DNA from: Solobacterium sp.
GTDB lineage: Bacteria; Bacillota_I; Bacilli_A; Erysipelotrichales; Erysipelotrichaceae
Assembly (NCBI GenBank): GCA_017539385.1
Contig: JAFYHC010000100.1
Span: 1-35,084, forward strand
Direction: 5' to 3'
DNA: 35,084 nucleotides
Shown one piece after another: positions 759-35,084 of the stretch (position 1 is the first letter of the stretch; each line of letters begins with the position of its first letter). Below the pieces are notes generated by a model. The model did not search any database. It had not been told where the DNA came from and saw nothing but the letters and a program-made list of their open reading frames with translations. Position numbers and translations under genes: made by a program.

Positions 759-3509
759 ATGATGAAGATCGAACATTGCCGGATCAACCACCGGGAGAAT
801 CCCATTGGATGTCATTTCGGTTCATTTCGGTTTTCCTGGCACGTGGAGGAAGCGGACGGCCCGCTTCTTTCGCGTATTGTCGTTCACAAAGGACAGGATG
901 TCTGCTGTGATACGGACTGGAAACAACTGGATATGACCGGTACGGTTCTGTCATTGCAGGCAGAACCCCGCACCCGCTATACATGGACGCTGTATGTGCG
1001 TGATGAAGCAGGAAATACAGAATCCAGTGAACAGTTCTTTGAAACGGGGAAAATGAATGAGCCATGGTCAGCGCAGTGGATCACCTGCACGAAGCAGACA
1101 GACCGCCATCCCATTTTCCGCAAACAGATCGTACGCAGAGCAGAGGTGGTATCGGCACGATTGTATATCTGCGGCCTTGGCCTCTACGAAGCGTATTATG
1201 AGGGCGAAAAGATCGGGGATCAGTATCTGACGCCATACTGCAATGATTATTCCACATGGCTGCAGGCACAGACATACGATGTGACAGACATGCTGCAGAA
1301 GGACGGCATGCTGGAAGTGGAACTGGGCAATGGCTGGTATCTTGGCCGCTTTGGCTTCAATGCTATTTCATCATTCCGCTATGGTACAGGACATCGTCTG
1401 ATTGCCGAAGTGCATATTGCCTATGCGGATGGCAGCACGGAAGTGATCGGTACAGATCCATCCTGGACTGTGAAGCGCTCCCATATTACATTCTCAAATA
1501 TCTATGACGGAGAGCACCGGGATGATACGCTGCAGGACATGGCAGAGGAATCCTGTGAACTGGTTCTGGATATGCCCGCTCCGGAAGACAGCAGAAGTCT
1601 TCCGGTCAAGGCTCATGAGGTATTTATACCGGCAATTGTGCATACACCGGCAGGGGAGACTGTATTTGATCTTGGACAGAATATTGCCGGTATCTTTACA
1701 CTGCGCGTCCATGAACCACGCGGCACAGTGATACGCCTGCAGGCAGGTGAAACACTGCAGGAAGGCAATTTCTACCGGGAGAATCTGCGTACGGCAAAGG
1801 CGGAGTATGTATATGTATCGGATGGGGAAGAACATATTCTGCGGCCGAAGTTTACGTTCTACGGATACCGCTATATGAAAGTGGAAGGCATCAGCGATGT
1901 GCGGGCGGAAGATTTCCGCGGTATTGCCCTGTACAGTGATTTTGAAAAGACTCTTGAGCTGCATACCGGCAATGCGAAGATCAACCGGCTGATCGAAAAC
2001 AGCCGCTGGGGCATGCAGGGGAATTTCCTGGATGTGCCGACGGACTGTCCGCAGCGGGATGAACGCATGGGATGGACCGGGGATGCACAGGTATTTGCAC
2101 CGACAGCAACGTATTTCGCCGATGTATATCCGTTCTTTGCAAAGTACCTGTATGACATGGCAAAAGAGCAGGGCAAGCGCAGCGGTGCGGTGCCGTTTGT
2201 CGTACCTGCCTTTGATATTGATGCGTTCGGACCATTTGGCACAACTTCTTCGGTATGGGGTGATGCGACTGTACTGATCCCATGGTACATGTACCGTACA
2301 TTTGGAGACACATCGATCCTGAAAGAACACTATCCGGCCATGAAAGCATGGGTAGATGCAGTGCGCAGGATGGATGGGGAAGACCACGGCTGGAGACGCA
2401 ATTTCCACTTTGGCGACTGGCTTGCCCTGGACGGCGCAGACCGTCCGGACAGTGTGGCAGGCGGTACAGATGAGGGATTTATCGCTGATATCTATTACCG
2501 CAAGAGTGCTGAGATCGTTTCCCGTACTGCGCATCTGCTGGGCTATGCACAGGACGAAGAAACATATGCTTCACTGGCTGAACAGATCAAAAAAGGCATC
2601 GAAGAAGAATACTATACGCCGTCGGGACGCTGTGCCATCATGACGCAGACCGGCGCCGTATTATCGATCATGCATGGTCTTGGCGATACCAGGAAAAACG
2701 GAGAGATGCTGGTGACGCTGCTGGAGAATAACAACCGAAAGCTGAAGACAGGCTTTGTCGGTGCACCGTTCTTGTGTGCAGCGCTGACTGCAATTGGAAA
2801 TGATGATCTGGCATATGATCTTCTGCTGAATGAAGAGTATCCGGGATGGCTGTATGAGGTGAATCTTGGTGCGACAACGATCTGGGAAAGATGGAACAGC
2901 ATAGGACCGGATGGCAGAATCTCTTCCACCGGCATGAACAGCCTGAACCATTATTCCTATGGCTCCATCGTACAGTGGATCGTTGAACGGTGTGCGGGAC
3001 TGTCACCAAAGGAAGCAGGTTTCCGCCAGGCATGGATCAGACCATTGCCGCACAGGGCGCTGAACGATCTGTCTTTGTCATACCGCTCCGCCGCTGGCAT
3101 GTGGCATGTATCATGGAAGCTGCTGGAAGGAAGAAAGATCGCATTGGATCTGTGTGTGCCATATGGTGCAGAAGCAGATGTCGTGCTGCCATGCTGGGAT
3201 GGTGCAGCAGAAGCGGATAATCCGCTGTTTGCGGACTGCAGGGATGGCATATGCCATGTGCAGGCTGGTGAATACCATGCGGAATATACATGGACATACA
3301 TGCCGGGCATCCTCTCTCTGGATACACCGATTGGAAAGCTGACGTCACGGAAAGATGCCATGAAAGTCCTGATGGAAAACATACCGGGTCTGAATCCGAT
3401 CGCTCTCAGCAAGACATCTTATATGACATTCCGGCAATATGCTGAAAGGAACGGCATCCCGGAAGATGCACTGCATCGTGCTGACGAAGCACTGCAAAAT
3501 CTTTCTTAA
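759..3509 (+). CDS. GH78 alpha-L-rhamnosidase
   Basis: A 916-residue inverting glycosidase that removes terminal alpha-L-rhamnose from plant glycosides or rhamnogalacturonan side chains. The N-terminal ~100 residues are Fn3-like, then come a Bac_rhamnosid N-terminal beta-domain with FDLGQNIAG (303-311) and the (alpha/alpha)6 catalytic domain. This domain carries DCPQRDERMGWTGDAQ (429-444), where Glu435 is the expected general acid, and TTIWERWN with Glu710 as the likely base. A final beta-sandwich is followed by a short helical tail (about 870-916) that is not part of the usual domain set. No signal peptide is visible, so it probably acts inside the cell on imported oligosaccharides. The start is fixed by AGAAGGAG at 748-755. 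It follows the isomerase by 10 bp. No terminator is evident before the CIRCE element 7 bp after its stop. Confidence 0.9.
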   Translation: MMKIEHCRINHRENPIGCHFGSFRFSWHVEEADGPLLSRIVVHKGQDVCCDTDWKQLDMTGTVLSLQAEPRTRYTWTLYVRDEAGNTESSEQFFETGKMNEPWSAQWITCTKQTDRHPIFRKQIVRRAEVVSARLYICGLGLYEAYYEGEKIGDQYLTPYCNDYSTWLQAQTYDVTDMLQKDGMLEVELGNGWYLGRFGFNAISSFRYGTGHRLIAEVHIAYADGSTEVIGTDPSWTVKRSHITFSNIYDGEHRDDTLQDMAEESCELVLDMPAPEDSRSLPVKAHEVFIPAIVHTPAGETVFDLGQNIAGIFTLRVHEPRGTVIRLQAGETLQEGNFYRENLRTAKAEYVYVSDGEEHILRPKFTFYGYRYMKVEGISDVRAEDFRGIALYSDFEKTLELHTGNAKINRLIENSRWGMQGNFLDVPTDCPQRDERMGWTGDAQVFAPTATYFADVYPFFAKYLYDMAKEQGKRSGAVPFVVPAFDIDAFGPFGTTSSVWGDATVLIPWYMYRTFGDTSILKEHYPAMKAWVDAVRRMDGEDHGWRRNFHFGDWLALDGADRPDSVAGGTDEGFIADIYYRKSAEIVSRTAHLLGYAQDEETYASLAEQIKKGIEEEYYTPSGRCAIMTQTGAVLSIMHGLGDTRKNGEMLVTLLENNNRKLKTGFVGAPFLCAALTAIGNDDLAYDLLLNEEYPGWLYEVNLGATTIWERWNSIGPDGRISSTGMNSLNHYSYGSIVQWIVERCAGLSPKEAGFRQAWIRPLPHRALNDLSLSYRSAAGMWHVSWKLLEGRKIALDLCVPYGAEADVVLPCWDGAAEADNPLFADCRDGICHVQAGEYHAEYTWTYMPGILSLDTPIGKLTSRKDAMKVLMENIPGLNPIALSKTSYMTFRQYAERNGIPEDALHRADEALQNLS

Positions 3510-11361: not shown

Positions 11362-11525
11362 GCAAAACGTATGTCCGTCACAAGCTTTAGCTTCACAGGG
11401 CGTGAAAATGCATTGGATGATACCTTGCATTCGATATCATCTGTTGAACCAGCGAATGATGTCTCCATCACTTTGCGGCAGCATCCCATATCCCTGTGGT
11501 AGCCTTACCTACCGTACAATTCTGC
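11362..11525 (-). promoter_or_regulatory. M-box (ykoK) Mg2+ riboswitch
   Basis: On the minus strand the conserved aptamer cores occur in order: GGTAGGTAAGGCTACC (11498-11513), GATGCTGCCGCAAAG, CGCTGGTTCAACAGAT, and GTGAAGCTAAAGCTT (about 11381-11395). The ends 11515-11525 and 11362-11371 pair as P1 (about ten pairs, one bulge). M-boxes sense Mg2+ and turn off transporter genes by favouring the terminator, here at 11321-11355. The whole 329-base gap between mgtE and the RpiR gene is thus explained, apart from about 65 bases at 11562-11626, where I see nothing. Confidence 0.95.
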
Positions 11526-31977: not shown

Positions 31978-33291
31978 ATGGGTGAAAAATTTATGAATGC
32001 CATGTTGGTCGTTGCCTCTAAGATTGGTAACAACCGAATCATGACATGCATCAGAGATGCCTTCACGGATCTGATGCCGCTGATCATTGCGGGTTCGTTC
32101 TGCACACTCTTCTCGAACGTTATCTGCAACACCACACCGGGCTACGTTTCTCTGGCAAATGTTCCTGGTCTGTCCTGGCTTGGAGTACTGAAGCCTCTGT
32201 TTGATGCAGCCAACTATGGTACCATGAACTTCATGGCTATTGGCATTGTCATTCTTCTTTCCATGAAAGTTGCTGAAAGCTATGACAACAATGACAGAGT
32301 CGTTATGCTCGTTGGTCTGGCTTCCTACATTTCTCTCTGCACGACATCCGTTACAGGTACAGCACCGGAGAGTGGTGAGGTCGTTACGATTGCAAATGCT
32401 CTCGGACGTCAGTTCACAAATGCTCAGGGTCTGTTCGTAGCTATGCTCGTAGGTATCGTTTCTTCGATCCTGTATGTTAAGATGGTTCAGTCCGGAAAAC
32501 TGCAGATCAACATGCCTGATTCTGTTCCACCGAACATTGCTCGTTCTTTCGCAGTTCTGTTCCCGGCAACATTAACAGTTCTGATCGTTTCCGGCTTCGG
32601 ACTTGCATTCCATATGATTACAAATATGACGCTGTTCGATGCAATCACAACATTCATCCAGGCTCCGCTGAAGAACATCCTGACCGGTCTGCCGGGCTTC
32701 ATGTTCCTGATGGGATGCACGGTTGTTCTGTGGTGGTTCGGTATCCATGGTACACAGACTCTGAAGGGTGTTTATGAAGCAATCCTGCTGCAGGCATTCG
32801 CAGAGAACGAAGCTGCTTACCTGGCAAATGAAGTTCCGCCGAACATCATCAACACACCGTTCATGTCCGTATTCGGTACAGTTACTGGTGCTGGTATCAC
32901 AGGTGGTCTGCTGATTGCTATTCTGCTCTTCTCCAAGCGTGAAGACTACAGATCCATTGCTAAGCTGGCTATTCCGTGCGCAATCTTCAACATCAACGAG
33001 CCGGTTACATTCGGTCTCCCGATCGTTATGAACCCGATCCTCGGTATTCCGTTCATTCTCTCTCCGATCGTTTCCGTCGGTGTTGGTTACTTCCTGACTA
33101 AGATCGGATTCTGTGCAAAGATGGTAGTTAACGCTCCGTGGACCACTCCTCCGGGACTGATGGCATTCCTCGCAGGCGGCGGCTCCATTGGTGCAGCTAT
33201 TTCTCAGATCATCGTTATTCTGATTGCGTTTGCAATCTATACACCGTTCGTCCTGATTTCCAACAAGCAGGCAAGCGGTGAAGAAGCATAA
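31978..33291 (+). CDS. PTS IIC permease, lactose/cellobiose family
   Basis: A 437-residue membrane permease for a beta-glucoside-type disaccharide, with about ten helices. Hallmarks are WWFGIHGTQTLKGVYE (252-267; His257) and INEPVTFGLPIVMNP in the C-terminal half. It resembles the permease at 12551-13819 in layout but is clearly diverged. AGGAGG is well placed before the ATG. The GH1 phospho-glycosidase gene follows after 76 bp, which hold a hairpin, so both are in one operon with reduced downstream expression. IIA and IIB are missing from the neighbourhood. It is probably under the divergent LysR regulator and the cre-like site. Confidence 0.93.
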   Translation: MGEKFMNAMLVVASKIGNNRIMTCIRDAFTDLMPLIIAGSFCTLFSNVICNTTPGYVSLANVPGLSWLGVLKPLFDAANYGTMNFMAIGIVILLSMKVAESYDNNDRVVMLVGLASYISLCTTSVTGTAPESGEVVTIANALGRQFTNAQGLFVAMLVGIVSSILYVKMVQSGKLQINMPDSVPPNIARSFAVLFPATLTVLIVSGFGLAFHMITNMTLFDAITTFIQAPLKNILTGLPGFMFLMGCTVVLWWFGIHGTQTLKGVYEAILLQAFAENEAAYLANEVPPNIINTPFMSVFGTVTGAGITGGLLIAILLFSKREDYRSIAKLAIPCAIFNINEPVTFGLPIVMNPILGIPFILSPIVSVGVGYFLTKIGFCAKMVVNAPWTTPPGLMAFLAGGGSIGAAISQIIVILIAFAIYTPFVLISNKQASGEEA

Positions 33292-33304: not shown

Positions 33305-34858
<1,554 letters not shown>

Positions 34859-34868
34859 CATCCTTCAT

Positions 34869-34883
34869 GATGCAAATTGCATC
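34869..34883. repeat. 15-bp palindrome after the GH1 stop
   Basis: GATGCAA-A-TTGCATC, a perfect 7-bp inverted repeat with a one-base centre. It lies between the GH1 stop codon and the hairpin region of the TnpB element and has no T-tract. Confidence 0.6.
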
Positions 34884-34885
34884 TT

Positions 34886-34971
34886 CCTGGTCAAGGATAC
34901 CAGTGTATCCAGATACCCCAGGCTTATAGGATCCCCGGTGCCTCCGGGTACCGTGTGATCGTATAAAGAGA
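34886..34971 (-). ncRNA. putative right end and omegaRNA region of a TnpB element
   Basis: Downstream of the tnpB stop, on the minus strand, there is a run of hairpins: GTGATC/GATCAC (34955-34975, overlapping the stop), CCCGG/CCGGG (about 34934-34948) and a nested pair with CCTGG/CCAGG outside (34886-34890, 34918-34922) and GGATAC/GTATCC inside (34895-34910). TnpB omegaRNAs are made from exactly this position, the 3' end of tnpB through the element's right end. The true right-end base and the guide start cannot be fixed from this window alone. Confidence 0.45.
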
Positions 34972-35084
34972 TCACTGAGGAAGCATTGTGCTGTATTGGC
35001 GCAGTGCTTCTTTTTTGATTGAGAGTGCGGCGTTGATATCGCGGTCGTGGTGGGTATGGCAGACAGGACAGTCCCATTCCCGTA
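34972..35084 (-). CDS. tnpB: TnpB (IS200/IS605 OrfB) C-terminal end, partial
   Basis: The last 36 residues of a TnpB RNA-guided nuclease; the gene begins beyond the window's right edge. The sequence starts REWDCPVC, the second CxxC of the zinc ribbon, and continues [14 protein letters not shown], the RuvC-III motif in which the Asp of DRDxNAA is catalytic. This is the hallmark C-terminus of OrfB/TnpB. It reads in the third minus-strand frame and ends with TGA at 34972-34974. Another minus frame with an ATG at 35077 is open over this stretch but has no family features. The element lies immediately behind the GH1 operon. Confidence 0.85.
34980..35016 (+). terminator. strong terminator of the GH1 operon, inside the tnpB end
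   Basis: GAAGCATTGTGC (34980-34991) pairs with GCGCAGTGCTTC (34999-35010), twelve pairs with two wobbles, then six T. The GH1 transcript therefore runs antisense across the TnpB right end and stops within the tnpB C-terminal codons. Confidence 0.88.

What the first reader, a model, noticed from the sequence alone, without database searches (positions are those of the whole stretch)
34886..35084. TnpB tail with structured right end behind a sugar operon
The last codons show CPVC and HDRDINAA, the zinc ribbon and RuvC-III of TnpB. Between its stop and the GH1 stop lie at least three hairpins in about 90 bases, the position of omegaRNA and the IS right end. TnpB proteins are RNA-guided nucleases and ancestors of Cas12. 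The guide would come from sequence just past the right end, which here is the end of the GH1 gene.
Basis: partly seen in the sequence, partly recalled or inferred. Interest (0 to 1): 0.75.

Follow-up and report, generated by a model that had tools for sequence, protein, structure and literature searches.

The report
Right end of a TnpB transposon
The end of this contig is the right end of a small bacterial jumping gene that encodes a TnpB RNA-guided DNA cutter and its guide RNA; this is a known kind of element, although the same genome also carries four short copies that kept the guide-RNA part and lost the protein gene.

Summary
The window is contig C84 of a metagenome-assembled genome of the Solobacterium/Erysipelotrichaceae group. 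It stops inside a tnpB because the element occurs twice and broke the assembly. The missing part lies on C39 (401 aa; RuvC-I, II, III, zinc ribbon and N-terminal HTH domain present; E=9e-71 to ISDra2 TnpB). C60 carries a second left end. Behind the tnpB stop lies a structured RNA (window 34867-34975, minus strand) with covarying helices, as expected of an omegaRNA. The DNA end hairpins also fit an IS200/IS605 element. No tnpA adjoins it, so it is of the tnpB-only (IS1341-like) kind. Verdict: a new member of a known kind. Whether the tnpB-less scaffolds are used in trans by TnpB is open and testable.

The parts
34972..35084 (-). 3' end of tnpB (last 36 codons plus stop; zinc ribbon CPVC, RuvC-III HDRDIN); the rest of the gene lies on contig C39/C60 of the same genome
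34955..34975 (-). P1 hairpin GTGATC-TCTTTATAC-GATCAC, overlapping the tnpB stop; stem differs between copies but pairs in most of them
34883..34953 (-). conserved omegaRNA-like scaffold core (71 nt; helices P2 34934-34948 and P3 34886-34922 with inner hairpin)
   Evidence: covariation; model R1; hits
34869..34883 (-). P4, the right-end subterminal hairpin GATGCA-ATT-TGCATC; different sequence in most copies, paired in 9 of 10
34867..34870 (-). likely element terminus TCAT (TCAC or TCAT in other copies; ordinary relatives end in TCAC)
   Evidence: boundary inferred to within a few bases
34847..34866 (-). predicted guide segment (flanking DNA; overlaps GH1 stop and last codons)
   Evidence: inference by homology with ISDra2 reRNA (PMC8612924); the only exact genomic match of an 18-nt stretch is this site
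33323..34858 (+). GH1 glycosidase gene (frame open from 33323; likely start at 33369), convergent with tnpB; host gene, not part of the element
31978..33291 (+). PTS EIIC gene of the sugar operon; host gene, not part of the element

Best explanation
The feature is the right end of a tnpB-only IS200/IS605-type element (IS1341-like) inserted between the GH1 gene and a polysaccharide deacetylase gene. The transcript of the tnpB 3' end and the right end folds into an omegaRNA scaffold. The flanking 16-20 nt (the end of GH1) serve as guide, and TnpB with this RNA would cut an allele of the locus that lacks the element, so that the element is kept or restored by repair. Shown here: gene, domains, catalytic motifs, RNA structure by covariation, end hairpins, copies. 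Inferred from ISDra2: transcription, processing, guide use and cleavage.
For: Full TnpB with PF01385, PF07282 and PF12323 above cut-off; NCBIfam guided_TnpB NF040570 at 6e-85, above its cut-off; ISDra2 TnpB structures at 9e-71; RuvC motifs intact in the own copy and in both sister-species copies. The second copy C81 shares the end. RNA helices covary. P1, P4 and the left-end hairpin are paired in most copies (combined p 5e-10, 5e-12 and 2e-7). Ordinary tnpB elements of the same genus carry the same scaffold followed by a fixed hairpin ending TCAC and then unrelated flanks. The window copy is completed by C60, as in the sister-species locus GH1-tnpB-deacetylase.
Against: No tnpA is adjacent; the Y1 transposase fragments of the genome sit at other contig ends. 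No empty site could be found, so the boundary and the TAM are not proven. The complete window copy is not on one contig. No expression data.
Confidence: 0.93

Rival explanations
1. The element is no longer mobile. It is a long-settled, vertically inherited TnpB/omegaRNA locus kept for some host use (RNA-guided control or protection of the locus).
For: Three of the six loci (GH1, HD-hydrolase gene, purC) hold the element in two species whose TnpBs are 60-68% identical. RuvC motifs and RNA structure are preserved.
Against: Other copies differ between the two species: C92 and C86 have no counterpart in G064, and the C47 and G064:C2 copies sit at different points of one gene neighbourhood. The nuclease motifs are intact, unlike TldR-type exapted relatives. 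Persistence by its own cutting would also give vertical inheritance.
Confidence: 0.12
2. The hairpins are simply a transcription terminator between convergent genes and not a guide RNA.
For: They lie between the GH1 and tnpB stops, and convergent genes often share terminators (general knowledge).
Against: No T-run follows P4 on either strand. The P2-P3 core is conserved in sequence and structure at unrelated loci and directions, which a terminator does not need.
Confidence: 0.03
3. The near-identity of the two tnpB copies of the genome reflects a recent transposition rather than overwriting of one old copy by the other (gene conversion).
For: The copies agree at 97-99%.
Against: Both loci are occupied in the sister species, by two more divergent tnpB genes, so both sites were probably occupied before the species split; gene conversion is the simpler account.
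Confidence: 0.2

Closest known systems
ISDra2 TnpB and its reRNA/omegaRNA (PMC8612924)
   Same: TnpB fold and domains, RuvC motifs, guide scaffold from the tnpB 3' end and right end, guide from flanking DNA
   Different: no adjacent tnpA; scaffold sequence without an Rfam match; TAM unknown and possibly T-rich; activity untested
IS1341 group (tnpB-only elements of the IS200/IS605 family)
   Same: tnpB without tnpA, end hairpins, structured right end
   Different: nothing substantial found; end hairpins vary from copy to copy by compensating changes
PATE-like ends-only IS605 derivatives (Halanaerobium hydrogeniformans, PMC7290912)
   Same: short elements with left and right end and no intact gene
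   Different: here four in one genome, with the omegaRNA scaffold far better conserved than the rest, and a shared ~370 bp body not clearly derived from tnpB
Ordinary tnpB elements of the same genus (e.g. L090, L092, L098)
   Same: same 71-nt scaffold with covarying helices, TCAC-type end
   Different: fixed terminal hairpin CCCCCACC..GGTGGTGGG, more distant tnpB

Membership tests
TnpB (IS200/IS605 RNA-guided nuclease) | RuvC-I/II/III catalytic motifs | tested here: met
   VGIDLG, CIEDL, HDRDIN in the full gene, aligned with ISDra2 TnpB
TnpB (IS200/IS605 RNA-guided nuclease) | zinc ribbon and N-terminal HTH domain | tested here: met
   PF07282 and PF12323 above cut-off; CHVCG and CPVC
TnpB (IS200/IS605 RNA-guided nuclease) | structured RNA at the 3' end of tnpB and right end | tested here: met
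   z -3.66, covariation
TnpB (IS200/IS605 RNA-guided nuclease) | RNA-guided, TAM-dependent DNA cleavage | not testable with these tools
   needs experiment
IS200/IS605 element | imperfect hairpins near both ends | tested here: met
   left-end hairpin p 2e-7 and P4 p 5e-12 combined; mononucleotide shuffles, related copies, segments set by eye
IS200/IS605 element | Y1 tnpA in the element (IS605 type) | tested here: not met
   left ends on C39 and C60 border host genes; Y1 matches lie elsewhere; hence filed as tnpB-only (IS1341-like)
IS200/IS605 element | insertion 3' of a fixed short TAM without target duplication | tested here: inconclusive
   all ten left ends follow a T-rich run but no empty site was found
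PATE-like element (the four short copies) | both ends present, no intact tnpA or tnpB | tested here: met
TldR (nuclease-dead TnpB) | lost RuvC residues | tested here: not met
   motifs intact

The most novel reading that the evidence does not exclude
The four tnpB-less elements are orphan guide-RNA genes served in trans by the two TnpBs of the genome: each keeps the scaffold and offers its own flank as guide, so that the short elements are retained at their sites by a nuclease they do not encode, giving one TnpB a set of scattered guides.
Probability: 0.35. Interest if true: 0.6.

Novelty: new member of a known kind. Interest (0 to 1): 0.35.

Why it matters
TnpB elements are among the commonest genes of prokaryotes and are thought to be the source of Cas12, so one more is ordinary. 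The set of short elements makes a question testable: whether non-autonomous IS605 derivatives profit from a TnpB in trans. Here the scaffold is kept at 92% identity while the rest of the element has drifted to 48%.

Tried and rejected
(1) That the variable hairpin P4 is target DNA rather than element: rejected, because three copies at unrelated loci (C92, C86, C47) share GATTC-N4-GAATCACGA, and other copies keep the pairing with other letters. (2) That the elements aim at terminators: the left ends follow T-runs, but some lie upstream of divergent genes, so not established. (3) A conserved small protein in the short elements (LRMxYCPPL...SAAKTKL in C47, C92, C86): not supported, since the frame is broken in G064:C2 and absent in C98. 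(4) An empty site at the purC locus, the GH1/deacetylase locus, or in G064 for C92, C86 and C47: none clean. (5) Other genomic targets for the window guide: no match better than 3 mismatches in 18, and reversed controls give as many. (7) A literature search for orphan TnpB guide RNAs gave no direct precedent in the held library beyond PATE-like elements; subscription journals are mostly missing. No structure prediction was run, since the sequence match to solved TnpB structures settles the fold.

Full report
Check of the observation. The last 113 bases of the window (34972-35084, minus strand) encode the C-terminus of a TnpB, with CPVC and HDRDIN; PF07282 matches above its cut-off. Between the tnpB stop and the GH1 stop lie 113 bases (34859-34971). 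The stretch 34855-35030 folds at -55.2 kcal/mol against a shuffle mean of -42.0 (z -3.66, 0 of 200 as good). No Rfam family matches here.

Why the window stops there. The window is contig C84 of a 2.70 Mb, 118-contig assembly with 85% completeness. Its last 202 bases match the first 202 of C81 at 99%, and both C84 and C81 overlap the start of C39 by exactly 141 identical bases. This looks like a de Bruijn graph break at a repeat (inference). C39 carries the whole tnpB (401 aa). C60 ends in a second copy of the left part, 97% identical over 371 bases. In the sister species G064 (Solobacterium sp. RGIG5894, JAFWNG) one contig reads deacetylase - tnpB element - GH1, and another reads HD gene - tnpB element - C81 gene. 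So C84 belongs with C60, and C81 with C39. This pairing is inferred by synteny.

The protein. Pfam: OrfB_IS605, TNB zinc ribbon and N-terminal HTH, all above cut-off. NCBIfam guided_TnpB at 6e-85. ISDra2 TnpB structures at 9e-71. VGIDLG, CIEDL and HDRDIN are present here, and their counterparts in both G064 copies, so this is not a nuclease-dead TldR. No tnpA adjoins either left end. The Y1 transposase matches of the genome lie at the ends of other contigs.

The RNA. A 71-nt core (window 34883-34953) aligns without gaps among 24 copies of this genus. A hand-written structure of 18 pairs has 99.1% of cells paired and 7 pairs changed on both sides; no shuffle reaches the covariation score, and slid versions have at most 55% paired. 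A covariance model of it finds copies in 17 of 70 genomes of the genus. Those outside G000 and G064 whose end was read carry a fixed terminal hairpin and TATGTCAC before unrelated flanks. In the window's subfamily (10 copies in G000 and G064) the hairpins P1 and P4 differ in sequence between copies yet mostly still pair (P4 in 9 of 10), and the left end has a hairpin of its own. Combined p values are 5e-10, 5e-12 and 2e-7. These use mononucleotide shuffles of short segments set by eye, with p floored at 1/300, and the copies are related, so they are indicative only. Most copies end in TCAC or TCAT after P4, which puts the right end of the window copy at about 34867.

Relatives without tnpB. 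Four further scaffolds in the own genome (C92, C86, C47, C98) and two in G064 (C39, C2) lie in elements of about 250-370 bp with a left end and no tnpB. They fit the PATE-like elements described for Halanaerobium (PMC7290912). Among the four of the own genome the scaffold is 91.8% identical, the left end 71.9%, and the body 47.9% (the body alignment is weak). A transposase would need the end hairpins, but not P2 and P3 in sequence (inference from the known IS200/IS605 mechanism). The best reading is therefore that the scaffold is kept for binding TnpB. Homogenisation between copies is an alternative.

History. The purC locus carries a short element in both species, and no such gene neighbourhood was found in the other purC loci read. 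The GH1 and HD loci carry tnpB elements in both. TnpB of G000 is 68% identical to the GH1-locus copy of G064 and 60% to the HD-locus copy, whereas the two copies of G000 are nearly identical where both are known, which points to gene conversion. C92 and C86 have no counterpart in G064, and the C47 and G064:C2 elements sit at different points of one neighbourhood, so the family has probably also moved.

How it most likely works. By homology with ISDra2 (PMC8612924) TnpB binds the RNA from its own 3' end and right end, with about 16-20 nt of flank as guide. For this copy that is 34866 to about 34847, minus strand, covering the end of GH1. It would cut an allele lacking the element. An 18-nt stretch of this guide has no other match in the genome with fewer than 3 mismatches. 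Expression, processing and cutting are not shown.

Verdict. The finding is real and correctly read, and it is a new member of a known kind. The part worth following is the set of tnpB-less scaffolds.

Noticed in passing
window 11363-11523, minus strand: M-box magnesium riboswitch (RF00380, 93.4 bits).
   Followed up: no
L031 about 770-1140, L030 about 1060-1450 (minus), L029 about 990-1380 (minus), L113 about 970-1340: The short elements share a body motif CAGCGAAAACCA(A/G)GCTG, a small hairpin with a conserved loop, and three of them share a possible small reading frame that is broken in the fourth.
   Followed up: partly
G000 contigs C29, C17, C61, C103, C67, C68 (L035-L040): Ends of solo IS200-type tnpA elements break these contigs too; possibly a trans-acting transposase for the short elements, untested.
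   Followed up: no
genome G025 (e.g. L044, L047, L049, L189): One genome of the genus carries 18 scaffold matches, many at contig ends, i.e. probably an active ordinary tnpB family.
   Followed up: no
L032 about 945-1000 and the other left ends: All ten left ends of the subfamily follow a T-run of 5-8, often behind a terminator-like hairpin; TAM or site preference unresolved.
   Followed up: partly
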